From Bacteroidales bacterium (GTDB taxonomy: Bacteria; Bacteroidota; Bacteroidia; Bacteroidales; JAIORY01): a DNA stretch of 37,549 nt. A program made the position numbers and the translations under genes. The stretch spans positions 1-37,549 of the forward strand of contig JAIORY010000231.1 in assembly GCA_021107915.1 (NCBI GenBank), written 5' to 3'. The notes beneath the pieces were generated by a model that was not told the DNA's origin, did not search any database, and saw only the letters and a list, made by a program, of their open reading frames with translations. Below are positions 23,880 through 37,549 of this stretch, in pieces. Position 1 is the first letter of the stretch. The number at the start of each line of letters is the position of its first letter.

Positions 23880-23984
23880 GAAAAAAAATATTTTGTGAAG
23901 TTGACACAAATTACACGAATTATCACTAATTTATTTTCGTAAAAAATTATTGTACAACCTTAAATCCGCAAATAAAATAAATAA

Positions 23985-24079
23985 ATAGCCGCGAATGCGC
24001 GAATAATAAAATATAACTTATTTTACTTAACCCAAATTAGTGAAGTAAAATTCGCTTAAATTTGCGATATTAGCGGCTA
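23985..24079. repeat. Imperfect long palindrome of the 'gcgaat' type
   Basis: TAGCCGCGAATGCGCGAAT ... AATTCGCTTAAATTTGCGATATTAGCGGCTA. Confidence 0.75.
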
Positions 24080-24130
24080 ATAAAAAAACACTTGCACTAA
24101 ATTTTGTATTATTGGTAAACTAAGAAAAAT

Positions 24131-24843
24131 ATGGCTCAAAAGAAAGATATACCTGCCGAAGGTTTTTCGCAAATATTGCTTTACACCACACCCAATGGAA
24201 ATGTTAAAGTTGAAATATATTTGAAAAACGAAACGGTTTGGCTTACGCAACAAAAAATTGCCGATTTGTTTGGGGTTGACAGAAGTGTGGCGACCAAACA
24301 TTTAAAGAACATTTATGATGATAGTGAGCTTAGCAAAAAGTCAACATGTGCAATTTTTGCACAAGTTCAATTAGAGGGTATTCGGGAAGTTAAAAGGAAT
24401 ATAGAATTCTACAATTTAGATGCAATAATTTCTGTTGGTTACCGTGTAAACAGTCGGCAAGCTACACACTTTAGAATCTGGGCTACCGAAAGGCTGAAAG
24501 AATATATCATCAAAGGTTTTACCATGGATGATGAGCGGTTGAAAAACCCAAACAATATTTTTGGTAAAGATTATTTTGAAGAACAGCTTGCCCGAATACG
24601 CGATATACGCAGCAGCGAAAGGCGATTTTATCAGAAAATTACAGATATATACTCACAGTGTAGTGTCGACTACGATATAAACGACCAGATTACCAAAGAC
24701 TTTTTTGCTACGGTTCAAAACAAATTGCATTGGCAATTACCGGACAAACAGCAGCAGAAATAGAACTTGAAAAATACCGTATTATCCAAGACCGTATATT
24801 AGAATCGGATTTTGATAAAGAGATAAAAAAACTGCAAGGATGA
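24131..24843 (+). pseudogene. RhuM-family protein, frameshifted and internally deleted
   Basis: Intact N-terminal RhuM sequence; after TVQNKLH the reading continues in another frame as AITGQTAAEI-ELEKYRIIQDRILESDFDKEIKKLQG, with the expected middle (about 100 aa from memory of the family) absent. Confidence 0.8.
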
Positions 24844-24917
24844 AATAGGAGTACAATCTTGCCGGCGAGCAGTAAATAATAATAGATAAACCAATAATCA
24901 TTCAAATAGATTACATT

Positions 24918-25435
24918 ATGAATAATGCTAAACTAAAAATATTTCAAGAACAAAGTGTAAGAACACACTGGGACGATAAACAAGAAAAATGGTTTTTTTC
25001 TATTGTTGATGTTATTGGAATTTTAACCGGACAAATTAACCATCAAGGAGCAAGAAACTATTGGAAAGTATTAAAAAAGAGACTTTTGAAAGAAGGAAAT
25101 GAAACGGTTACAAATTGTAACCGTTTGAAAATGCTTGCAGCTGATGGCAAAATGCGAATGACTGATGTAGCAGATACAGAGCAGTTGTTACGGCTAATTC
25201 AATCTGTTCCATCGCCCAAAGCAGAGCCTTTTAAAAGATGGTTGGCAAAGCCTCAACAACAGAAATTGCCCGAAATAAAAATGCTCAGGGGTTTTTCGAA
25301 AACAAAAATGCTGCAAAACAAGGTGGAAGCGTAGCAGGCAAAGCAAGAAAAGACCTTGAGAAACGCAGCGGTAAAAAAGTAATCAGTAAACAAAATTATC
25401 ATCAGTTGGGCGAAGGTAACTATAAAGAAGAATAA
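24918..25435 (+). pseudogene. Bro-N/prophage antirepressor-like protein, internally deleted and frameshifted
   Basis: N part ...VPSPKAEPFKRWLAK joins out of frame to C part ASTTEIARNKNAQGFFENKNAAKQGGSVAGKARKDLEKRSGKKVISKQNYH. Confidence 0.78.
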
Positions 25436-25478
25436 GCTATATTTGTTTTTTTTTGATATTTAACCATAAAATTTAAAT

Positions 25479-25486
25479 TAACTTTG
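25479..25486 (+). promoter_or_regulatory. TAnnTTTG-type promoter element
   Basis: TAACTTTG 17 nt upstream of the ATG of the ABC-ATPase fragment. Confidence 0.35.
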
Positions 25487-25502
25487 TAAATTAGCCAACT
25501 CA

Positions 25503-25590
25503 ATGTTGGAAATCAAAAACATATACAAATCATTTGGAGAACAAAAAGTTCTTCAGGGTTTAAATATGTCTATTGAGAAGGAAAAACTAA
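25503..25590 (+). pseudogene. N-terminal fragment of an ABC transporter ATPase
   Basis: MLEIKNIYKSFGEQKVLQGLNMSIEK is a canonical ABC N terminus but breaks before Walker A. Confidence 0.7.
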
Positions 25591-25939
25591 TGCAATTTAT
25601 GTTGAGCGTGCAAAAGAAGTATTGAAATTTTATAAACCTGATAAATGATTTTGATATTGGAGAAATAAAAATAATGTAGTTCATACAACAATGTTAGTGT
25701 TCATTTTGTTCGAGAAAAGAAGCGCAGGTTTAACACATTTGGGGTTTACCGAAATACGCAAAACACGCAAAAAACCAAAAGGGATACCTTTTGCTGGCAC
25801 ACTAAAAATAAAATGCAAAGACTTGAAAACAAAAAAACATTACAAACGAATTATAAAAGCAAATAAATAAAGAAATGGTAGAGATATTTATTTTTAAATT
25901 AAAAATGACTTACTTTGCAAGTAATTAAGAAATTTATGT

Positions 25940-27361
25940 ATGGAAACAAAAATTAAAACAATAAAAAAGGCAACAATATACTTTAACTATTCATTCATGC
26001 CTAGCTCTAATGACTTCACGTTAAAAGATGATGACATTGAAAAGCTTTACAAAGCATTAGAAAATGAAGATAAACTAAAGGATAGAATTAATGACAAATA
26101 TAATTTTGGCAAACCAAAGGAGAGAATAGGCATATCTTCTTTTAATTCATTGGAGCACAAAAATATTGGTTACCTTCAATTACCGGAAATGTTAGTTAAA
26201 ATTGATTCAATTAATTTAACAATTGAACCATTGTTTCGTTTTTTTCCTAATGGAAGTACCTTGACATTCAAAGTTGAAACCCAGGATAGTGAAATTGATC
26301 AATATATAATCCATAAGGTATTACATATGGTAAGCCAGGAAAGAAACGAAAAAGCAGATGTTACTTTTGTTTTTTCCAAAGAGATAGATAAAGCAAGCAA
26401 ACATTTTTACAAAGACTTTTTTAATATTGATACTAAAGAAGAAGAAAAGGAAATAGTAGTCTATCACAAAGAGAAAGAATTAGATATTAATTATACTCCG
26501 GAAATAAAATTATCACATGACTTCTTTACTGAAGAAAACCAAAATATCACCCTATTTCAATTGTTCAAAGGACTTGTAGAAAAATATATTCTAGTGGCAA
26601 GTAAAGAAGAGAAACTAAATGAAAAAGAGAAAAAGGATAAAAAAGATGTATTATTCAAATTGAAATGCAAGGAATACCTTAATACTAATGAGGAGGAGCC
26701 AAGAACTCCATGGGTAATTACTGTTTTAGATGTAGATGATGAATTAAATGAAATCCTTTGTTCCGGGGGTTCTAATAACGAGAGAACTAATGCCATATTA
26801 GAAAAGTCAAAGCTGATAGCTCCAATTCTATATCGTTCAGTTTCGGGTTCAGACTTTGAGCTAGAGCCATCCTATCCTTTTTTACCTAAAAGATTAAATT
26901 TCTTCAATCTTAATCTGGATTCAAGGCTTTATGTCGACATCTCAAGAAGATCAATTCTTTGTATAAAAACCAATGAACAAAAATATCCTGCGTATTATTT
27001 TATCCCGGTATTGTTAGATATTTCTGAAATGACATTCTCAAGATGGCAATCCCTATTAATTATTAATAAAATTATTGATGAGGCATTAAAAAATTTTACT
27101 GAAAAATCGCTTTCTGCTGGAGATCGTGTTAAAAAAATCATGAATCTTTTAAATAAATTTTCAGCATGTATTGAGGATACTTCAAACTATTTTATTGGTG
27201 GAGATGCTCTTCGAGAAATACATGATAAACTTATAGATAACTTTAAAGTGAATGACTTAATGAATATTACTTTAAGAAAAATAGATATGCTTGAAAGAAC
27301 CTATAAATATCAACTTGAACAAGCCTGGACTGAGCCTTATAAAGTAAGAAATAATGAGTGA
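25940..27361 (+). CDS. Uncharacterized 473 aa protein, partner of a TIR protein
   Basis: Long ORF; no TM or signal; helical C terminus (RWQSLLIINKIIDEALKNF...LRKIDMLERTYKYQLEQ); 8 bp overlap with the downstream TIR gene. Confidence 0.85.
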   Translation: METKIKTIKKATIYFNYSFMPSSNDFTLKDDDIEKLYKALENEDKLKDRINDKYNFGKPKERIGISSFNSLEHKNIGYLQLPEMLVKIDSINLTIEPLFRFFPNGSTLTFKVETQDSEIDQYIIHKVLHMVSQERNEKADVTFVFSKEIDKASKHFYKDFFNIDTKEEEKEIVVYHKEKELDINYTPEIKLSHDFFTEENQNITLFQLFKGLVEKYILVASKEEKLNEKEKKDKKDVLFKLKCKEYLNTNEEEPRTPWVITVLDVDDELNEILCSGGSNNERTNAILEKSKLIAPILYRSVSGSDFELEPSYPFLPKRLNFFNLNLDSRLYVDISRRSILCIKTNEQKYPAYYFIPVLLDISEMTFSRWQSLLIINKIIDEALKNFTEKSLSAGDRVKKIMNLLNKFSACIEDTSNYFIGGDALREIHDKLIDNFKVNDLMNITLRKIDMLERTYKYQLEQAWTEPYKVRNNE

Positions 27362-28883
27362 TAGGAAACATTATAGTGAAGAAAGTGATAGGCTGACGAA
27401 AGTATTAGATTCCCGAGCTAGAAAAATTAGAAGATCAGAAAGTTTAATAGTTCTAAGTGAAGAATTTCCTGAGACTAAAAATATTATAGAAAAGATTCTC
27501 GAATACTATTTCTTTGAGTCTAATATGTTTGAAGAATTAGCGACTTCCATTACTTATCTCAAATTAAATAATGAAATCGATAGCCAAAAATTTAAATTTT
27601 GGATACACATAATTGATATTGCAGATGAAATTAGTTGGGAAACAAAACAATCATTTGGTGAATTAATTTATAAGACTTTTGATATAGGAGAAGAGTTTTT
27701 TAATAGACTTAATCGAAATCTTGTCGAAATAGAAAAGGCTCATAATAAGTTTTTTGAAAATATCAAAAAGAACAAGCAGTTATTACCGAAGGATACTAAA
27801 ACATTATTAGATAAATTTCTTGTTAAAAATAACATTTTGGACAATAATGTGAAAGTTGAAAGTGAATCAGTAAAAAATGATAGCATTGAATTGGAAACAA
27901 AAATCAACAATTCGAATAAAAATGTAAATGAAAAAGGCCCTATAAAAGCTTTTATCAGCTATGCCCATGAAGACGAAGATTTTAGAATAAATCTTAGAAA
28001 ACATTTAAAGAGTCTTGAACGCAGAAATCTGATCGAAGTATGGGATGATCGTGAAATTGTTGCTTCAGATGAGTGGAGAGAGGAAATTAAAAAAGCTTTA
28101 AGAAATTGCCAACTTGCTTTGTTATTGATTAGTATTGATTTCATCAATTCCGATTTCATCAATGATCAAGAATTAAATGAATTTTTAAGAAAACGAAAAG
28201 ATGAGGGACTAAAGATTGTTCCGATTATTATTCGTGAGTGTGATTGGAAGGAGGAGATATTTGCTAACCTTCAAGCTACTCCAAAAGACGGAGAATCAAT
28301 TAGTTCATATCAGAATAGAGATTTAGCATGGGTAGAAGTTGTGAATGAAATAAAGAGGGTACTTAAAAATATTTCAGAAACCACATCATCGATTGAAAAT
28401 ACATTAAATGATTCATTTAGTAAAACTAATATAGAGCATAATAAAAGTGTAATTCCTATGGAAACAGAAAAAGCACATACGAAAGCAAATTTGCAGGCAA
28501 TTGAAGTTAGATTATTAGCATCTTTCAATACGATAAAAGTTTTAGATGCAAAATTTAGAAGAAAAGAAATAACACCTGAATTCTATTTTGATAAAAGAAA
28601 AGCATATGTTGAAGATAACTTTTCTGATTTCAATGAAATTATAAAAATATTGAAAGAAACAGGAGCTTCAGATTTTGCAGATGTTTTTGAGAGAACTATT
28701 AATTTAGATACAACTAATAAAGAACAAGAAGTTGCTATAAAGGAGGAATTAATACTTGAAACAGAAAAGGCTGAGGACAAAGGATGGATAAAAAACTTAA
28801 AAGAAAAAGTGAGTCAACATAAAGGTGATATAATTGATGTTGCAATAAAAACAGCTATTGCAATTGGAACAGCATTGCTATAA
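27354..28883 (+). CDS. TIR-domain protein with unknown helical N-terminal domain and hydrophobic C-terminal tail
   Basis: KAFISYAHEDEDFRINLRKHLKSLERRNLIEVWDDREIVASDEWREEIKKALRNCQLALLLISIDFINSDFINDQELNEFL is a TIR_2-type domain; C terminus GDIIDVAIKTAIAIGTALL. Confidence 0.9.
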   Translation: MSDRKHYSEESDRLTKVLDSRARKIRRSESLIVLSEEFPETKNIIEKILEYYFFESNMFEELATSITYLKLNNEIDSQKFKFWIHIIDIADEISWETKQSFGELIYKTFDIGEEFFNRLNRNLVEIEKAHNKFFENIKKNKQLLPKDTKTLLDKFLVKNNILDNNVKVESESVKNDSIELETKINNSNKNVNEKGPIKAFISYAHEDEDFRINLRKHLKSLERRNLIEVWDDREIVASDEWREEIKKALRNCQLALLLISIDFINSDFINDQELNEFLRKRKDEGLKIVPIIIRECDWKEEIFANLQATPKDGESISSYQNRDLAWVEVVNEIKRVLKNISETTSSIENTLNDSFSKTNIEHNKSVIPMETEKAHTKANLQAIEVRLLASFNTIKVLDAKFRRKEITPEFYFDKRKAYVEDNFSDFNEIIKILKETGASDFADVFERTINLDTTNKEQEVAIKEELILETEKAEDKGWIKNLKEKVSQHKGDIIDVAIKTAIAIGTALL

Positions 28884-28902
28884 ACATTTAAAAATATTTA
28901 TC

Positions 28903-29901
28903 ATGAAAACAAGATTATTAATTTTCGCTATCATACCAGTTCTCTTTGTATTAATTGGTTGTAATAGCAACAAAACGAAAAATACGGAAAAAGAAATTCA
29001 GGTTACTTGGGGTGGTCCTAAAAACATTTCAATGTTACCAATTATAGCAGAAAAAAAGGGATTTTTTAAAGAGGAAGGCTTGAACATTGAAACTAAGTAT
29101 TTACAAACCGGCAAAATTGCAATGGATGCACTTTTAAGTAAAGACCTTGATTTTGCGGTAATGGTAGAAACAAATGTTGCCTTTATAGAATACCAGAAAG
29201 GAGCAGATATAGAAGTTATTTGTTCTATTGAGGAAAAATATGATGATGCTATTGTTGCAAGGAAAGATAAAGGCATTAATGAACCTAAAGACTTGGAAGG
29301 TAAAACCGTTGGGATTTTAATCGGGACAACATCTCATGTTTTTGCTGATAGATTTGTAAATTATTACAATCTTGATGCAAGTAAAATCAACTTTATAAAC
29401 TTAGCTCCTCCAGCCATCCAGGCGGGATTATTAACAGGGCAAATAGATGCAGGAAGTGTTTGGCAACCATTCAGGTATAATGTTGAAAAACAACTTGGTG
29501 AAGATGTTATTCAATTCAATGCTAAGGATATTTACAAGGCGTATGGGATAATATCCATCAGGAATCAATTTGGGGAAGAACATCCTGAAACTGTTAAAAA
29601 ATTCCTGGCAGCCTTAATCAAAGCTGAAAACTATGTAAAAACCAATCAAGCTAAATCAATCAAAATTCTAGCGAAAGAATTAGCTATGCAGGAAGAAGTA
29701 TTAAGCGCAATTTGGAGTGAATACATATTGAATGTTAAGCTAGATGCGGAATTATTGACATTAATTAAAGAAGAGGGCGAGTGGATCCATAGCAGCCAAA
29801 AAGGTTTTGAAAATAAACAAGTTCCTTCATACGAAAATGTGCTGAATCCAACTTTTCTTTCAGAACTTAAAAAAGAGAACGCAGAGGAACTCTCAAAATA
29901 A
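28903..29901 (+). CDS. NitT/TauT-type ABC transporter substrate-binding lipoprotein
   Basis: Start at ATG 28903 gives MKTRLLIFAIIPVLFVLIGC lipobox; PIIAEKKGFFKEEGLNIE...GILIGTTSHVFADRF. Confidence 0.9.
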   Translation: MKTRLLIFAIIPVLFVLIGCNSNKTKNTEKEIQVTWGGPKNISMLPIIAEKKGFFKEEGLNIETKYLQTGKIAMDALLSKDLDFAVMVETNVAFIEYQKGADIEVICSIEEKYDDAIVARKDKGINEPKDLEGKTVGILIGTTSHVFADRFVNYYNLDASKINFINLAPPAIQAGLLTGQIDAGSVWQPFRYNVEKQLGEDVIQFNAKDIYKAYGIISIRNQFGEEHPETVKKFLAALIKAENYVKTNQAKSIKILAKELAMQEEVLSAIWSEYILNVKLDAELLTLIKEEGEWIHSSQKGFENKQVPSYENVLNPTFLSELKKENAEELSK

Positions 29902-29913
29902 TTATCAATTTGA

Positions 29914-30660
29914 ATGAAGAAACTCCTTTTTGTAATAGGGCCAATTGCATTATTAATTCTTTGGTGGATATTAACGAAGTTTGGATTCGCCAATTCTTTT
30001 TTACTTCCGTCACCTGAAGATACTTTTTCAAGATTATTTGGATTATTTTCGTCAGGAGAGGTGTTTAATGATATAAGGTTAACTTTTTATCGGTGGTCAA
30101 TTGGATATCTTTTAGGCTGTGTTGTTGGCATTCCTTTAGGTATTTTAATGGGTTATTCTGAAAAAGTATATAAAAGTTGTGAATTTCTGATTGAATTTTT
30201 CAGGTCCCTACCTGTTACAGCCATGTTCCCTCTATTTTTACTAATGTTTGGAATTGGAGACAGCTCAAAAATTGCCATGACTTTTACAGCAACAGTCTTT
30301 ATTATAATAATAAATAGTGCTTATGGAGTAACACAAACAAAAAAGTCTCGAATTAAAGCTGCCAAAACATTCGGAGCTACAAATTTTCAGATTTTCACTA
30401 ATGTTGTGTTTTATGAATCCCTGCCTCATACCTTGATTGGAATGAGAACAACACTAAGCCTTTCATTGATTGTTGTAATTGTAAGCGAAATGTTTATTGG
30501 TACACAGTTTGGACTTGGGCAACGAATTTATGATGCCTACACCAGAAATTCTGTTGATGAGCTTTATGCTGTGATAGTATTATTGGGAATAATCGGCTAT
30601 TTTTCGAATAAGTTATTTATGTACATGGAAACTAAAATTGCATTTTGGACAGGAAAGTAG
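29914..30660 (+). CDS. NitT/TauT-type ABC transporter permease
   Basis: 248 aa polytopic; ESLPHTLIGMRTTLSLSLIVVIVSEMFIGTQFGLGQ. Confidence 0.92.
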   Translation: MKKLLFVIGPIALLILWWILTKFGFANSFLLPSPEDTFSRLFGLFSSGEVFNDIRLTFYRWSIGYLLGCVVGIPLGILMGYSEKVYKSCEFLIEFFRSLPVTAMFPLFLLMFGIGDSSKIAMTFTATVFIIIINSAYGVTQTKKSRIKAAKTFGATNFQIFTNVVFYESLPHTLIGMRTTLSLSLIVVIVSEMFIGTQFGLGQRIYDAYTRNSVDELYAVIVLLGIIGYFSNKLFMYMETKIAFWTGK

Positions 30661-31415
30661 TACATATAAAAGTAGATAAAATATCAAAATCATTTAAAAA
30701 TGATGAAGGTAGAATAGAAGTGCTTAAACATGTAAGCCTGGAAATTTATAAGGGTGAATTTTTAACATTCTTTGGTCCGAATGGCTGTGGAAAGTCGACA
30801 TTAGTAAACATTCTTGCAGGAATTGAAGAGGCTGGAGATGGAGAAATAACCTTTCCGGAAACCAACGGGAAACCGAAAATTGGGTTTGTCTTTCAAAACT
30901 ACCGGGATAGTTTAATGCCCTGGCTAAATGTTGAAAAAAATATCTGTTTCCCATTAAAATTAAAGGGAATAACTAAGAGTGAGCAAAAGGAAAGGTTGAA
31001 AACATTAATATCAGAATTTGAAATTAATATTGACCTGAAATCTAAGGTTTATAATTTATCAGGAGGTCAGGCTCAAATGGTTTCAATCTTACGCGGCTTA
31101 ATTGTTAATCCTGAAATATTGATCATGGATGAACCTTTTTCTGCTCTTGACTATCAGACAAATTTAATGTTGTATGAAGAATTATTAAAAATTTGGAGAA
31201 AGCTTAAGATTACAGTCATTTTAATTTCTCATGAAATTGACGAAGCTATATATCTCGGTGACAGAGTTGCTTTTTTAAGTAAAAAACCCGCTTCAATATT
31301 TAAAGTTTTGAATTCTGATTTACCAAGACCAAGGAAATTGGAAGATATGGGATCGCAAGAGTTTGCTGAATTAAAGAAAAAAGCATTAGAAATATTCAGA
31401 AATACAGCGACGTAA
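30645..31415 (+). CDS. NitT/TauT-type ABC transporter ATP-binding protein (TTG start)
   Basis: Walker A GPNGCGKST; LSGGQAQ signature; MDEPFSALD; overlaps permease by 16 bp. Confidence 0.95.
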   Translation: MDRKVVHIKVDKISKSFKNDEGRIEVLKHVSLEIYKGEFLTFFGPNGCGKSTLVNILAGIEEAGDGEITFPETNGKPKIGFVFQNYRDSLMPWLNVEKNICFPLKLKGITKSEQKERLKTLISEFEINIDLKSKVYNLSGGQAQMVSILRGLIVNPEILIMDEPFSALDYQTNLMLYEELLKIWRKLKITVILISHEIDEAIYLGDRVAFLSKKPASIFKVLNSDLPRPRKLEDMGSQEFAELKKKALEIFRNTAT

Positions 31416-31424
31416 TTAAATTTA

Positions 31425-32318
31425 TTATTTAGTTAGATTGGTGTATGAAACAATTTCCATTATAAGATTATTAATCCAATCAACACAATTGTCATTATCT
31501 TTTGATGGTATATAGTTAGCAATGCTAATTCCTGCAATTTCAAAATCTTCTAATAACTGGAGAGTGATATCTGATATCTCTTGTTTTAACAATCCATTAG
31601 AATGTGGAGCATAAACCGGAGGATCTTCCGAAGAGTCAATAACATCCAAATCATAGTGAATGAAAATTGATTTTATCCTATTTTGAATTAACTTTTTTGA
31701 TAATTCAGAAATCTTCTGATCTACATTTTCCTTTAAATTATCACCAGAGTATAATATTATCTTTTGTTTGTCTATAAGTTTTTTCTCTCCTTCATCAAGG
31801 TTTCGCTGCCCTAACATTATAACATTGGATGGTTTAATAAATTCCCTCATTTTATTCAATTCCAGAATTTCCGGGTGACCAAATCCAAGTATATGGGCTA
31901 ATCCCATTCCGTAAAAACAACCACTTGGACTGGTTTCAGGTGTATTAATATCAGCATGAGTATCAAACCAAATTATTCCAACATCATGATTATTAGCTAA
32001 TACGCCATATACAGTACCAATTGTTGATGAATCATCGCCCATTAACACCAATGGAATATTACCAGATTTTACTGTAGTTTGTACTTCTTCCTGTATTACT
32101 CTATTTAATTGTAATATCTCAGGTAAATTCTTAGAATTTGCATATTCACCCTGTGAATGCTCTGGTTTTGGTACTGGTATTTCTATTCTAATAACATTAT
32201 TACTAATACCTTCACCCACCTTTTTTAGTACCGATGATAAAACAACCGGTCCTTTTTCCATTCCACAATTAATATCGGGAGCACCGAGACTGCTTGAAAC
32301 TTCAATTATTTGAAACAT
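31425..32318 (-). CDS. Arginase/ureohydrolase family protein with divergent first metal motif
   Basis: FDTHADINTP and HYDLDVIDSSEDPP motifs; MGDDSS where GGDHS is expected. Confidence 0.85.
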   Translation of the reverse strand: MFQIIEVSSSLGAPDINCGMEKGPVVLSSVLKKVGEGISNNVIRIEIPVPKPEHSQGEYANSKNLPEILQLNRVIQEEVQTTVKSGNIPLVLMGDDSSTIGTVYGVLANNHDVGIIWFDTHADINTPETSPSGCFYGMGLAHILGFGHPEILELNKMREFIKPSNVIMLGQRNLDEGEKKLIDKQKIILYSGDNLKENVDQKISELSKKLIQNRIKSIFIHYDLDVIDSSEDPPVYAPHSNGLLKQEISDITLQLLEDFEIAGISIANYIPSKDNDNCVDWINNLIMEIVSYTNLTK

Positions 32319-32321
32319 ATC

Positions 32322-33446
32322 TTAATGAGGTTTATAAATTGGTTCTCTTTTTGGTAGTTCTTTTATTCTCTCTACTGACAAAACAATTTCGCCAACAGTT
32401 CTTTTAAATATTGGAGTAGAAAATATCCAATTCTCAATATTTATTAATTTATCAACATCCCATCCTCGCTCTGATACCTTTTGTAAAAATACTCTTTTGT
32501 AAGCTTGAAAAATCGTACTATTGTTTAAATAAAACTGAACGGCTTCTTCTTTCGTATCAACTATATGCACAAATGGCAAACTACTTTTAACAACTTCTAC
32601 ATAAGACTGAAGACAAAATCTTTTTAAAAAATCATCGTCCGGTTTTTCTGGTATTCCAACAACTTTAAATGTATCAAAGTCGCATAAAAATAAATCCAGA
32701 TTGCCTTGTTCATCAATATTAATAACATCATTACCAATATTACTGTTAAGCAATCCCCTGAAACCTCCATTAAAATTCATATTTACTAATAGCAAAGCTT
32801 TAGTATAGGTATAAAATGAATTATTAATTCCTGTTAAATTCACTTCCCTTCCCAAGCCATGTCTTAAATCGAATAAATCCGATTTTACCTTTAAATTTAG
32901 CAGACTATCTATTGTTTGATTTTCATATTCAAATCTTGATTCAATTCTTGTTTCTGATACTGTTTTTTCAACAATGCAATATCCTTCTCCAATCGGAAAT
33001 ACAGCAACAGGAATGAGATTAGTTTGTAAATTGTACTTCTTGAAAAAACCATAACCCAGTATTTCTCTAATTACCTGATCTATGGTAAGAATACCATATG
33101 GTATCGTAGTTACTTTAACATTCTCCTCACCAAAAAACATACTCTCGCTTGGGAATTTTCTTTTTTCATGATATGGATTACACCCTTTTAATTTTAGCAT
33201 TTTATCAGATATAAAAGCTGATCTTTCGCCATGTCTATAAGCATATTGAACACCCTTTTCCGACTTTAACCACTTGGCTCTTGATAAAGGAACCTTAAAA
33301 TCATCAATCGAATTTTTGTATAGTTTGTTATCTGAAAGAATTTTTATTTCCCGATTTGATAATTGAACATTATTAATATGCTTACTAACAAAATCGGTAA
33401 TTGAATAAATATTACTTTCAAACTCATATAGCTTTATCTTTTCCAT
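32322..33446 (-). CDS. Uncharacterized 374 aa protein, possibly kinase-fold (SelO-like)
   Basis: GERSAFISDKMLKLKGC and GGFRGLLNSNIGNDVINIDEQGNLDLFLCDFDTF faintly resemble nucleotide-loop and N...DFD kinase elements; 2-3 bp gaps to both neighbours. Confidence 0.8.
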   Translation of the reverse strand: MEKIKLYEFESNIYSITDFVSKHINNVQLSNREIKILSDNKLYKNSIDDFKVPLSRAKWLKSEKGVQYAYRHGERSAFISDKMLKLKGCNPYHEKRKFPSESMFFGEENVKVTTIPYGILTIDQVIREILGYGFFKKYNLQTNLIPVAVFPIGEGYCIVEKTVSETRIESRFEYENQTIDSLLNLKVKSDLFDLRHGLGREVNLTGINNSFYTYTKALLLVNMNFNGGFRGLLNSNIGNDVINIDEQGNLDLFLCDFDTFKVVGIPEKPDDDFLKRFCLQSYVEVVKSSLPFVHIVDTKEEAVQFYLNNSTIFQAYKRVFLQKVSERGWDVDKLINIENWIFSTPIFKRTVGEIVLSVERIKELPKREPIYKPH

Positions 33447-33448
33447 AT

Positions 33449-35263
33449 CTATCGCAGGTGTTCAGAAACTGTCTGAAAACTTAAATTCATTCTGGATAAA
33501 AGTTCCAGGTCATGCTCGTTTTTTCTGGCAATCAAATAATTATTCATGACCAAAAAGTCAATTTTTCCTTTGCCAGATGAAAGGAAATTTTCAAGTGCAT
33601 GTTGTGGACTGTGAACAATAGGTTGTCTGATATTAAAAGATGTATTTACTAATATTGGAATTTTGGTTAATTTATGAAACTCTTTAATGAGATTATAAAA
33701 TGGTTTGTTCGAATCTTCTGAAACGACCTGCACTCTACCAGTATTATCATAATGCGTTACTGCCGGGATTTCCCCAATCTTTTCCGGTTTTATTTTATAA
33801 GAAAAAAGCATCCATTTATCAGATTCGGCACCACCTTTAGGTCTGATAAACCAATTATCCACCTCACTTTCCAAAACAGAAGGAGCTAATGGTCTAAACC
33901 ATTTACGTCCTTTAATATCCTGGCTTAATCTCTTTAATATATCACTTCGTCTGGGATCAGATAGAATACTTCTATTACCTAAAGCTCTTGGGCCAAATTC
34001 CATTCTACCCTGATACCAGGCTATTATTGCTCCTTTTGTTAACAGATCAGCGGTTATTGTGTCAATGTTTTCAATCTGAATAAACTGTATTTCATCACAA
34101 TTTGCCAGATACTCACTAATTTGATTATTATCAAATTGCGAACCCAGATATGGTGTAAATAGTTGATGATTAGTATTGCCAACAATATGTTTATCTACAT
34201 AAAGAGCAGCTCCTAATGCAGTTCCCATATCATTAGCTGCTGGTTGAATAAAAATATTTTTAAACTTACTATTTTCGAGAATGTATGTATTGGTAGTACA
34301 ATTAAGAGTAACTCCTCCCGCCATACATAAATTATCTGATCCAGTTAAATCGTGTAGCTTATTTGCCCAAATCAATACTATTTCGTTTGTTAATTTTTGC
34401 ATTGCTGCGGCAAAATCCATGTGATCCTGAGAAAACTCTTCATTTTCTTTTCTTGCTTTAAACCCAAATAATTTTTCATATTCTTCATGTGTTTCATATC
34501 TGAATTGAAATATCTCATCATTAATTTGGAAGTCACCTTCATTGTTGTAGTAAACAAATGACCGAAATTCTTTATAATAATTATCTGGATTTCCATAAGA
34601 TGCAAGAGCCATTAACTTTCCAGCTCCATATTCGCCCATTCCATTTATCAGTGCACTAAGAAATCTAGATGCTTTAGTCCATAGAAAACCAAGCGAATTG
34701 GGATAACCACCTTTTTCTTCAAATATTTGTAATAACCCCTTCCCTCCTTTTGCAAACATTCTGCTATAGTATTCTCCAATTCCATCAATGGTTAAAACAG
34801 CAGAATCCTCAAATGGTGAAACAAAATATGCACTTGCAGCATGACAAACATGATGAGGTATCCAATGCCATTTATTTCTTAAATCAACTCCATATTTACT
34901 TTCTAATATTTCTGGTATTGAGTTAACTAATTTATAATATTTGCTTTCTCCGGAAAGGCTCCCCCAATCTCCTTCAATAACATTACCATTTTGATCAATG
35001 TTTCTGATAAGTCTTTGAATAGGATCAAATGAAAATCCAATGTGATTAATTTCTTTAAAAGTAATATTAGCAAACTTCAAACATTCATTAATTGCTAGAA
35101 ATGGTAATTGATGTGGATTGGTAATTAAAGCTGATTTTCCATGCCTAACCCTGTTTAGTCTTTCTTCTTCAATTGCAAATAATACTTCACCATTTTTTAA
35201 TAAACAGGCTGCCGGTTCATGATAAACAGAATTAATTCCTAATATAAAAGTATCTTTACTCAT
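33449..35263 (-). CDS. NodU/CmcH (TobZ-like) carbamoyltransferase
   Basis: 604 aa; GINSVYHEPAACLLKNGEVLFAIEEERLNR; WYQGRMEFGPRALGNRSILSDPR; LVNTSFNIRQPIV. Confidence 0.95.
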   Translation of the reverse strand: MSKDTFILGINSVYHEPAACLLKNGEVLFAIEEERLNRVRHGKSALITNPHQLPFLAINECLKFANITFKEINHIGFSFDPIQRLIRNIDQNGNVIEGDWGSLSGESKYYKLVNSIPEILESKYGVDLRNKWHWIPHHVCHAASAYFVSPFEDSAVLTIDGIGEYYSRMFAKGGKGLLQIFEEKGGYPNSLGFLWTKASRFLSALINGMGEYGAGKLMALASYGNPDNYYKEFRSFVYYNNEGDFQINDEIFQFRYETHEEYEKLFGFKARKENEEFSQDHMDFAAAMQKLTNEIVLIWANKLHDLTGSDNLCMAGGVTLNCTTNTYILENSKFKNIFIQPAANDMGTALGAALYVDKHIVGNTNHQLFTPYLGSQFDNNQISEYLANCDEIQFIQIENIDTITADLLTKGAIIAWYQGRMEFGPRALGNRSILSDPRRSDILKRLSQDIKGRKWFRPLAPSVLESEVDNWFIRPKGGAESDKWMLFSYKIKPEKIGEIPAVTHYDNTGRVQVVSEDSNKPFYNLIKEFHKLTKIPILVNTSFNIRQPIVHSPQHALENFLSSGKGKIDFLVMNNYLIARKNEHDLELLSRMNLSFQTVSEHLR

Positions 35264-35422
35264 TCAATTATTAAGTTAAAACATTAAAATTAAAAATTAG
35301 GAGACAAAAATAATAAAGTAATGTAGAATTATACTACATTTTTGAAATTAATTGAGCTATACTCACACAGCTAACCACCTTTCTAATCCCCCAAAAACCA
35401 AACCCCAACAAAGTTTTTTCCA

Positions 35423-35608
35423 TCAAATCATCTTCCCAATCCTCGAATTTACCAGTATTCCGCTTAAAATTCCAATAGAGGTTTCGTATCCGAAGACTTT
35501 TAGTTTTTCGGAAATCTTTGTTTTTCTTTTGCACCGAGGTTTGATTTGATAATTTTCGTAGCATAGTTATTTATACATAAAGAATTATTGTAAATTTGTA
35601 GTATAAAA
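35423..35608. repeat. 186 bp dispersed repeat, copy 1 (gene-tail remnant plus promoter)
   Basis: Aligns without indels to 36123-36308 at an exact 700 bp offset; gene-tail part also matches 37167-37308. Confidence 0.95.
35591..35598 (+). promoter_or_regulatory. TAnnTTTG promoter element carried in repeat copy 1
   Basis: TAAATTTG, 20 nt upstream of ATG 35619. Confidence 0.5.
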
Positions 35609-35618
35609 AGTTATCATT

Positions 35619-35939
35619 ATGAAACATTTAGAAATAAAACAAAACGAACAAAATTATCCTGATTTATTTGAAAAAGACAATACCGAGCCTTTTTTAGTTG
35701 AAAATAGCAAAGGCAATCATTTTTTAGTTTTACCATTGCAACAAATGAATTGGCAGGAAATATTTTTTCAGTTATATCAATTACCTTCAAATTTGTTTTT
35801 ACATAAAAAAGAAGTGAAAACAAATTATGATAATATTGAGAATTTATGTGGTTCTATGGAAGGGTTGTTATCATCAAGTAATAGTTTTGCGCAAAACAAA
35901 CAAAATGAAATTGATTTGGAAAATAAAAAGTGGAAGTAA
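35619..35939 (+). CDS. Small protein, antitoxin-like by position
   Basis: 106 aa soluble ORF; its stop overlaps the ATG of a truncated PIN-like toxin. Confidence 0.55.
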   Translation: MKHLEIKQNEQNYPDLFEKDNTEPFLVENSKGNHFLVLPLQQMNWQEIFFQLYQLPSNLFLHKKEVKTNYDNIENLCGSMEGLLSSSNSFAQNKQNEIDLENKKWK

Positions 35940-36035
35940 TGAAAACATATATTCTTGATGCTGTTGAAAAAAACTCAAAACTTAAATTTTATTGGTTGCG
36001 ATGAAACCATTGCTTTAAAAGAAACAAAAAATTGA
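35939..36035 (+). pseudogene. PIN-domain toxin remnant
   Basis: MKTYILDA N terminus, then in a shifted frame LKKTQNLNFIGCDETIALKE resembling a PIN C terminus; middle absent. Confidence 0.4.
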
Positions 36036-36122
36036 TACTGATTATGAAGTTCAGTTTTTTTATTGTTGGCAACCATTTTTTAGAAATACAGAGTAAAAGA
36101 AAAAGATAGGAAAACTTATCTT

Positions 36123-36308
36123 TCAAATCATCTTCCCAATCCTCGAATTACCCAGTATCCCGCTTAAAATTCCAATAGAAGTTTCGTATCAAAAGACTTT
36201 TAATTTTTCGGCAATCTTTGTTTTTCTTTTGCGCCGAGGCTTGATTTGATAATTTTCGTAGCATAATTTTTAATACGTAAATAATTATTGTAAATTTGTA
36301 GTATAAAA
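36123..36308. repeat. 186 bp dispersed repeat, copy 2
   Basis: Indel-free alignment to 35423-35608. Confidence 0.95.
36291..36298 (+). promoter_or_regulatory. TAnnTTTG promoter element carried in repeat copy 2
   Basis: TAAATTTG, 19 nt upstream of the GTG start at 36317. Confidence 0.5.
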
Positions 36309-36316
36309 TAGAAATA

Positions 36317-36640
36317 GTGAAAACAAATATTAAAATTCTAAAAAAACTAAAGAAATCTCTTATTAACAAGTTTGGAGAAAACATAAAAGAAGTGATTTTA
36401 TTTGGTTCCCATGTAACAGGCAAGGCTCACGAAAATTCCGATTATGATGTATTGGTTATATTAAACAATGATTATAACTGGAAATATAAGAGAGAAATCT
36501 TACACGTTTGTTATGATATTGAATTAGAACACGATATTTTTATTGATATTAAAATTATTTCTATTAATGAGTTAAATCATTCTATTAAAGGGCAGCATCC
36601 TTTATACGAAGAAGCTTTAAATAAAGGAATACTAATATGA
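36317..36640 (+). CDS. MNT-type minimal nucleotidyltransferase (antitoxin-like)
   Basis: GSHVTGKAHENSDYDVLVI; overlaps a HEPN remnant; GTG start. Confidence 0.88.
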   Translation: MKTNIKILKKLKKSLINKFGENIKEVILFGSHVTGKAHENSDYDVLVILNNDYNWKYKREILHVCYDIELEHDIFIDIKIISINELNHSIKGQHPLYEEALNKGILI

Positions 36641-36833
36641 CATTAAATGATGAGAACAGGCAAAGTTTGATAAAAAATATAATCAGATTTTGAGAGATGC
36701 TTTTACTGTCCGTTCAGAGGCAGATTATGGAGAATTTGTTGAATTTACTGAAGATCAAGTACTCGAAATGTTTGAAGAAATGAAAGACTTTATAAATGTT
36801 GTTAAGCCATTAATACTATCCAAAGAATATTAA
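36637..36833 (+). pseudogene. HEPN-domain protein remnant, internally deleted
   Basis: MTLNDENRQSLIK followed out of frame by KYNQILRDAFTVRSEADYGEFVEFTEDQVLEMFEEMKDFINVVKPLI. Confidence 0.75.
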
Positions 36834-37046
36834 TATTAATTTTCGGTTATACCGATACGGAATAGAATTGTAAATTTTTATAAAGTTTATCCTTACGGCA
36901 TAACTACTTCTAATAGAATACATGAAGTTTTCGGGATAATGTTTTTAATAGGAATCAGGATTTTAAACCTATCGAATTCGATAGGTTTAGAAATAAAGTC
37001 GGGAGTAATTATTTTGTATTATCTAATGATTTATGGAAAAAATTTA

Positions 37047-37105
37047 TCATCGAATTGAACGAATTATACGAATTTTCAATTCGTTCAATTAGTGTAATTC
37101 GATGA
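37047..37105. repeat. Iteron hairpin of the 'cgaatt' type
   Basis: TCATCGAATTGAACGAATTATACGAATT...AATTCGTTCAATTAGTGTAATTCGATGA. Confidence 0.85.
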
Positions 37106-37166
37106 CAAAAATTATAATTTGATGACAAAACAAGGATATTTGTCATACACCCAATCTGCCTGTTTT

Positions 37167-37549
37167 TCAAATCATCTTCGCAATCCTCGAATTTCCCAAT
37201 ATTCCGCTTAAAATTCCAATAGAAGTTTCGTATCCGAAGACTTTTAGTTTTTCGGCGATTTTGGTTTGTTTTTCTTTGGAGCTTAGGCTTGATTTGATGA
37301 TTTTTTTAAGTTCTTTATATTGAGAGCCTTTTAGTTCGTCTTGTAATATTTCGTTAATGATGTTGATGATTTCTATTGAACTTGCATCATCTGTTTTTCC
37401 CGGAATACCGAAAATTTCAATTTCTGCTATTGCTGCTTCGAGAATTTCGCGGGCAAGTTTTTTTGAGGCGTCAATAATGGAGGATGAGCCTGATGTATCT
37501 CGTAATGACCAACTGCTATAATCAGATTCAATTTTTTCGATCTGAATTA
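37167..37549 (-). CDS. Uncharacterized protein, C-terminal part (runs off the right edge)
   Basis: Open minus-strand frame to the window end: KIESDYSSWSLRDTSGSSSIIDASKKLAREIL...EKLKVFGYETSIGILSGILGNSRIAKMI*; not in the supplied ORF track. Confidence 0.75.
   Translation of the reverse strand, partial: IQIEKIESDYSSWSLRDTSGSSSIIDASKKLAREILEAAIAEIEIFGIPGKTDDASSIEIINIINEILQDELKGSQYKELKKIIKSSLSSKEKQTKIAEKLKVFGYETSIGILSGILGNSRIAKMI

What the first reader, a model, noticed from the sequence alone, without database searches (positions are those of the whole stretch)
25940..28883. Two-gene module: unknown 473 aa protein coupled to a TIR-domain effector
The 473 aa gene and TIR gene overlap by 8 bp (ATGAGTGA), implying translational coupling. 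The TIR domain keeps the expected Glu in NDQELNEFL and has an uncharacterized N-terminal helical domain and a hydrophobic C-terminal tail. TIR proteins in accessory regions often act in antiphage defence (Thoeris, SPARTA and others), but the partner matches none I recognise. Candidate new TIR-based immune or signalling system, with the 473 aa protein as possible sensor.
Basis: partly seen in the sequence, partly recalled or inferred. Interest (0 to 1): 0.75.

Follow-up and report, generated by a model that had tools for sequence, protein, structure and literature searches.

The report
TIR protein tied to nutrient importer
The two genes are the front part of a rare five-gene cassette that also encodes a complete bacterial importer, and the TIR domain (a domain often used to kill infected cells) is one interchangeable option in it, so this looks like an undescribed importer-linked signalling or immune module rather than a stand-alone TIR pair.

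Summary
A 473-aa gene (A, 25940-27361) overlaps by 8 bp (ATGAGTGA) a 509-aa TIR gene (B, 27354-28883) with the putative catalytic Glu273. A matches nothing in Pfam, NCBIfam, PADLOC or PDB sequence searches. Three more genes follow at once: a lipoprotein substrate-binding protein, a permease and an ATPase of a NitT/TauT/Ssu-type ABC importer. I found three other A-bearing loci (Bacteroidota; A 60%, 36% and about 20% identical). All have the same order A-B-SBP-permease-ATPase, so the unit is five genes. B is modular. In the closest relative, DNA similarity runs through A, breaks across B's N-terminal 70% (TIR included), and resumes for B's last ~142 aa (82% identical) and the importer. None of the three other B proteins has a recognisable TIR. 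The cassette lies in a ~13-kb island beside ileS that is missing from a congener. Best reading: A and B are cytosolic partners of a dedicated importer, B joining a fixed C-terminal docking part to a swappable output domain (here TIR). Importer-gated signalling or immunity is inferred, not shown. It is rare: three genomes found in all searches. Defence remains possible but unproven.

The parts
25940..27361 (+). Gene A: 473-aa protein of an unnamed family; predicted strands followed by helices; no signal peptide or TM segment
   Evidence: ORF; relatives in L006, L004 and L015, each heading the same cassette; no family match; low-confidence model
27354..28883 (+). Gene B: 509-aa modular protein: helical N-terminal region (aa 1-197), TIR (198-345), constant C-terminal region (about 367-509)
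   Evidence: breakpoints from the comparison with L006
27945..28388 (+). TIR domain coding region of B, putative catalytic E273 (codon 28170-28172)
   Evidence: PF13676; E273 invariant in 7 TIR domains
28455..28883 (+). Constant C-terminal region of B (about 142 aa), 82% identical to the otherwise different B of L006
28903..29901 (+). Lipoprotein substrate-binding protein, NMT1/SsuA-like
   Evidence: PF09084 3.4e-29; TIGR01728 4.3e-41, below its curated cut-off; hydrophobic N-terminus ending in a lipobox-like IGC
29914..30660 (+). ABC importer permease
   Evidence: PF00528 9.8e-19
30645..31415 (+). ABC importer ATPase; DNA similarity to L006 ends at its 3' end (31408)
   Evidence: PF00005 6.5e-29
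23941..37162 (.). Accessory island of about 13 kb that carries the cassette, absent from a same-genus genome
   Evidence: G470:C151 joins the left (to window 23940) and right (from 37163) flanks within about 0.1 kb

Best explanation
Shown: A and B are the first two genes of a conserved, rare five-gene cassette, A-B-SBP-permease-ATPase, found in Bacteroidota, on a mobile-looking island here. B is modular: its C-terminal part is constant between close relatives while its N-terminal and central part, here including a TIR domain, is replaced. Inferred: A and B are cytosolic proteins that work with the dedicated NitT/TauT-type importer. The lipoprotein SBP binds a small molecule outside the inner membrane; B's C-terminal region and/or A couples the pair to the transporter or membrane; ligand binding, transport state or an insult is relayed through A to B, whose interchangeable output domain acts. 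Here the output would be TIR assembly with NAD+ cleavage or a TIR-made signal. The purpose would be signalling or immunity gated by an importer.
For: Same gene order in 4/4 loci although A falls to 17-23% and the SBP to 32% identity. In 198 genomes of the order, an SBP this similar (E<=1e-40) occurs only in the two A-carriers. DNA similarity to L006 starts 39 bp before A and ends at the ATPase stop, with one gap exactly over B's N-terminal and TIR region. B's C-terminal region is 82% identical to that of a TIR-less B. A and B lack TM segments, while the SBPs carry lipobox-like signal sequences. Putative catalytic Glu retained.
Against: Only four loci in three genomes. No direct evidence that A or B touches the importer, senses anything or has activity. 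B in L004 and L015 is assigned by position, not by significant sequence similarity. Two loci carry a radical-SAM enzyme after the ATPase, which could point to metabolism. Models of A and B are poor.
Confidence: 0.4

Rival explanations
1. A metabolic uptake operon: the importer brings in a specific nutrient or cofactor precursor, and A and B are accessory or regulatory proteins. The TIR domain is a scaffold or a glycosidase acting on the imported compound, with no role in immunity.
For: SBP, permease and ATPase are of the sulfonate/taurine/thiamine-precursor type. Radical-SAM/B12-binding genes follow the ATPase in two loci. The L006 locus sits among housekeeping genes.
Against: B's replaced N-terminal and central part, and the faster change of A than of the importer (60% against 82-87%), are unusual for a metabolic operon. 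Very patchy distribution; island location in the window.
Confidence: 0.3
2. One reading: A (sensor) and B (TIR effector) form an antiphage pair; the importer is a passenger.
For: TIR closest to PADLOC's ThsB model; island with MNT-like, RhuM and Bro-N genes that PADLOC lists as defence candidates; an LmuB/PtuA-like ATPase near the L004 cassette; replaceable B domain.
Against: The importer is kept in 4/4 loci and shows the highest conservation. TIR in only 1 of 4. No A or B in phage, plasmid or viral collections.
Confidence: 0.2
3. A ThsB-like protein of an incomplete Thoeris system, its ThsA encoded elsewhere in the genome.
For: Best PADLOC model is ThsB, E=1.4e-36 over the TIR domain.
Against: The ThsB match covers only 145 of 509 aa. 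No ThsA-like neighbour among the genes scanned. A recurs with B proteins that have no TIR.
Confidence: 0.05

Closest known systems
Thoeris (ThsA/ThsB)
   Same: TIR domain of B is best matched by the ThsB model; putative catalytic Glu present
   Different: No ThsA beside it; B has extra N- and C-terminal regions; partner A unrelated; linked to an ABC importer; most relatives lack the TIR
SPARTA (short pAgo with TIR-APAZ)
   Same: Two adjacent genes, one encoding a TIR protein
   Different: A has no Argonaute match and B no APAZ match in Pfam
TIR-SAVED CBASS
   Same: TIR similarity to the PADLOC SAVED_TIR model, 1.5e-11
   Different: No CD-NTase or SAVED domain; the match is limited to the TIR region
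NitT/TauT/Ssu-type ABC importers
   Same: Lipoprotein NMT1/SsuA-like SBP, one permease, one ATPase, in the usual tight order
   Different: Below every curated NCBIfam cut-off; always preceded by A and B in the four loci; substrate unknown
NTP-dependent conflict systems with modular effectors (Kaur et al. 2020, eLife 52696)
   Same: Idea of a fixed part joined to exchangeable effector modules; that paper mentions periplasmic-binding-protein domains as one variable module
   Different: No STAND, MoxR-vWA or GTPase component here; the text has no mention of 'ABC transport', 'permease' or 'NMT1'
CorA cytosolic domain (lead for A only)
   Same: Top Foldseek hits of A's low-confidence model are CorA chains (best E 0.017, probability 0.94); strands followed by long helices
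   Different: No TM helices; hhalign against a small CorA alignment is not above shuffled controls

Membership tests
TIR domain superfamily (domain of B) | Significant TIR profile match | tested here: met
   PF13676 57.5 bits against cut-off 28; PF01582 27.7 against 21.3
TIR domain superfamily (domain of B) | Putative catalytic Glu of NAD-cleaving TIRs | tested here: met
   E273 invariant in 7 aligned TIR domains; activity itself not testable here
Thoeris | ThsB-type TIR protein | tested here: met
   PADLOC ThsB 1.4e-36, aa 200-344 only
Thoeris | ThsA next to ThsB | tested here: not met
   A and the scanned neighbours match no ThsA or SIR2 model; rest of the genome not searched
SPARTA | Short Argonaute partner and APAZ domain | tested here: not met
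   No Pfam or PADLOC match of A; B matches TIR only
CBASS | CD-NTase in the operon | tested here: not met
   No such domain among the cassette genes. The MNT-like gene at 36317 gives only a weak cyclase hit, 2.5e-4, about 5 kb away
NitT/TauT-type ABC importer | SBP + BPD_transp_1 permease + ABC ATPase in one operon | tested here: met
   PF09084, PF00528 and PF00005 all above cut-off
NitT/TauT-type ABC importer | Assigned substrate subfamily (taurine, sulfonate, nitrate, Sao) | tested here: not met
   All NCBIfam scores are below curated cut-offs
CorA family (for A) | Two C-terminal TM helices (with GMN motif) | tested here: not met
   No TM segment in any of the four A proteins; hhalign not significant
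Antiphage defence system (functional class) | Protects cells from phage | not testable with these tools
   Needs a phage challenge

The most novel reading that the evidence does not exclude
A previously undescribed class of bacterial immune or signalling system: a periplasmic binding protein and its ABC importer act as the input arm, perhaps taking up a molecule released by neighbours or disturbed by infection, and a new protein family (A) relays this to a modular effector (B) with a fixed docking end and interchangeable output domains, one of them a TIR NADase.
Probability: 0.25. Interest if true: 0.9.

Novelty: new variant of a known kind. Interest (0 to 1): 0.6.

Why it matters
I know of no TIR system wired to a nutrient-type importer, and my searches of open-access papers found none. 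If A and B take their input from the importer, bacteria would have a TIR-type response gated by small-molecule uptake, with the effector domain exchangeable on a constant C-terminal region. Even if the answer is metabolic, two unclassified protein families with a fixed importer partner are a clear, testable target.

Tried and rejected
Family scans of A (Pfam, NCBIfam, PADLOC, PHROGs) and PDB sequence searches: no meaningful match (a single PHROG hit at E=0.0018 over 60 aa was not pursued). Plasmid and phage tblastn and five viral-contig scans: no A relative and no B relative outside the TIR domain. Two weak genome hits to the A profile (E 0.03): the one examined is a chance match in an unrelated lipoprotein-like gene; the other was not examined. 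The idea that all four B proteins share an N-terminal helical region, with a TIR inserted in one, was attractive by eye but is not supported for the window's B (41/400 shuffles reach its score against L006); L006-L004 is borderline (5/400). CorA homology of A: suggestive in Foldseek, not significant in hhalign; one of the seven CorA rows was read in a wrong frame, which weakens that control. The AF2 model of B was unusable and did not recover even the TIR fold. The arginase/374-aa/carbamoyltransferase operon was rejected as part of the system because none of its genes is in the other three loci. No riboswitch or other Rfam family near the cassettes.

Full report
Observation. The two ORFs are as described: A 25940-27361 (473 aa) and B 27354-28883 (509 aa), overlapping in ATGAGTGA. 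B has a TIR domain at aa ~198-345 (PF13676 2.4e-15; PADLOC ThsB 1.4e-36). Its E273 is invariant in an alignment with six TIR domains from plasmid-borne genes. A has no match in Pfam, NCBIfam, PADLOC or PDB sequences. The C-terminal 'hydrophobic tail' is moderate (Kyte-Doolittle 1.49, below a usual TM threshold).

The unit is larger. Nineteen bases after B begins a lipoprotein SBP (28903-29901, NMT1/SsuA-like), then a permease (29914-30660) and an ATPase (30645-31415) of a NitT/TauT-type importer.

Relatives. A is rare. Searches of 396 (phylum), 295 (order) and 395 (class) genomes, which are overlapping sets, found one relative besides the window's own, in G527. A scan of the GTDB-220 contigs, limited by two seed patterns, returned that locus again (Bacteroidetes bacterium GWE2_42_24; L004/L005) and a new one, L006 (Prolixibacteraceae PL24a_bin.47). 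A three-sequence profile then found a second, far more distant A in L006's genome (G1020:C31; locus L014/L015). The four-sequence profile found no further members in 295 order genomes or 253 phylum genomes apart from two weak hits (E 0.03), of which the one I looked at is spurious.

Conserved order. In all four loci the order is A-B-SBP-permease-ATPase, with gaps of -26 to +19 bp. Identities to the window: L006 A 60, SBP 82, permease 87, ATPase 85%; L004 A 36, SBP 36, permease 44, ATPase 39%; L015 A 23 (global pairwise; 17% in the multiple alignment), SBP 32, permease 24, ATPase 36%. Keeping five genes together through such divergence is hard to explain by chance. In 198 genomes of the order, an SBP this similar (E<=1e-40) occurs only in the two genomes that carry A. 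L004 and L015 add a B12-binding radical-SAM gene after the ATPase.

Modularity of B. Between the window and L006, DNA similarity runs from 25901 (39 bp before A) to 27310, stops, and resumes from 28499 to 31408 at the end of the ATPase. The gap covers B's N-terminal and TIR region. The last ~142 aa of B are 82% identical. The L006 B has no TIR match, nor do the B-position proteins of L004 and L015. Third codon positions in B's C-terminal region are more alike (70%) than in the importer genes (55-58%), which fits a more recent exchange of that segment, though the sample is small. Whether the N-terminal regions of the different B proteins are homologous is unresolved: L006-L004 5/400 shuffles, window-L006 41/400. 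B in L004 and L015 is therefore assigned by position.

Genomic setting. In the same-genus genome G470 the flanks of window ~23941-37162 lie about 0.1 kb apart, so the cassette is on a ~13-kb accessory island beside ileS. The right part of the island holds two partial copies (35423, 36121) of a ~140-190-bp stretch whose third copy (37165) lies in the flank shared with G470, which fits repeated integration at one spot. The arginase/374-aa/carbamoyltransferase operon in the island is not found in the other loci.

Structure. The AF2 model of A (four-sequence alignment) has mean pLDDT 46 and pTM 0.53: strands followed by a helical C-terminal third. Several of the best Foldseek hits are CorA (best E 0.017), but hhalign against CorA gives nothing above shuffled controls and A lacks TM helices. 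This is only a lead. The model of B is unusable.

Mechanism. Shown: linkage, modularity, island location, presence of the TIR glutamate, and no membrane spans in A or B against lipobox-like signals in the SBPs. Inferred: A and B are cytosolic partners of the importer; B's conserved end docks and its variable part is the output; in this genome the output is TIR-based.

Known systems. The TIR resembles ThsB, but Thoeris, SPARTA and CBASS membership fails for lack of their partner genes among the neighbours. The paper searches found no description of a TIR system tied to an SBP-dependent importer; the library is open-access only. I therefore rate it a new variant of known kinds (TIR effector plus ABC importer), with a real chance of being a new class.

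Noticed in passing
window 35423-35608, 36123-36308, 37165-37319: Three direct copies (84-92% identical) of a ~140-190-bp stretch; the third lies in a gene end shared with the congener G470, so the others look like duplicated target ends left by successive integrations.
   Followed up: partly
window 31425-35263 (-): Three-gene operon convergent to the cassette: NodU-like carbamoyltransferase, an unclassified 374-aa protein, an arginase-family protein. It looks like a small biosynthetic set and is not in the other cassette loci.
   Followed up: partly
window 36317-36830 (+): MNT-like nucleotidyltransferase (PADLOC PDC-S09 1.2e-18) followed by a short ORF, possibly an MNT/HEPN toxin-antitoxin pair.
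   Followed up: no
window 24131-25334 (+): RhuM-family gene and Bro-N gene, both shorter than their profiles and probably truncated, inside the island.
   Followed up: no
L015 2610-9138: The genome of L006 carries a second, very divergent A-B-importer cassette with a radical-SAM gene: two copies in one genome.
   Followed up: partly
L004 14668-17073 (+): 801-aa SMC-like ATPase (weak LmuB/PtuA matches) two genes after the L004 cassette, followed by a 394-aa protein; possibly a defence pair.
   Followed up: no
L006 9343-9915 (-): A class-I glutamine amidotransferase gene stands divergent and adjacent to the L006 cassette; relation unknown.
   Followed up: no
window 28455-28883: B's C-terminal region shows higher third-position identity to L006 (70%) than the importer genes (55-58%), hinting at recent exchange or extra nucleotide constraint.
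   Followed up: partly
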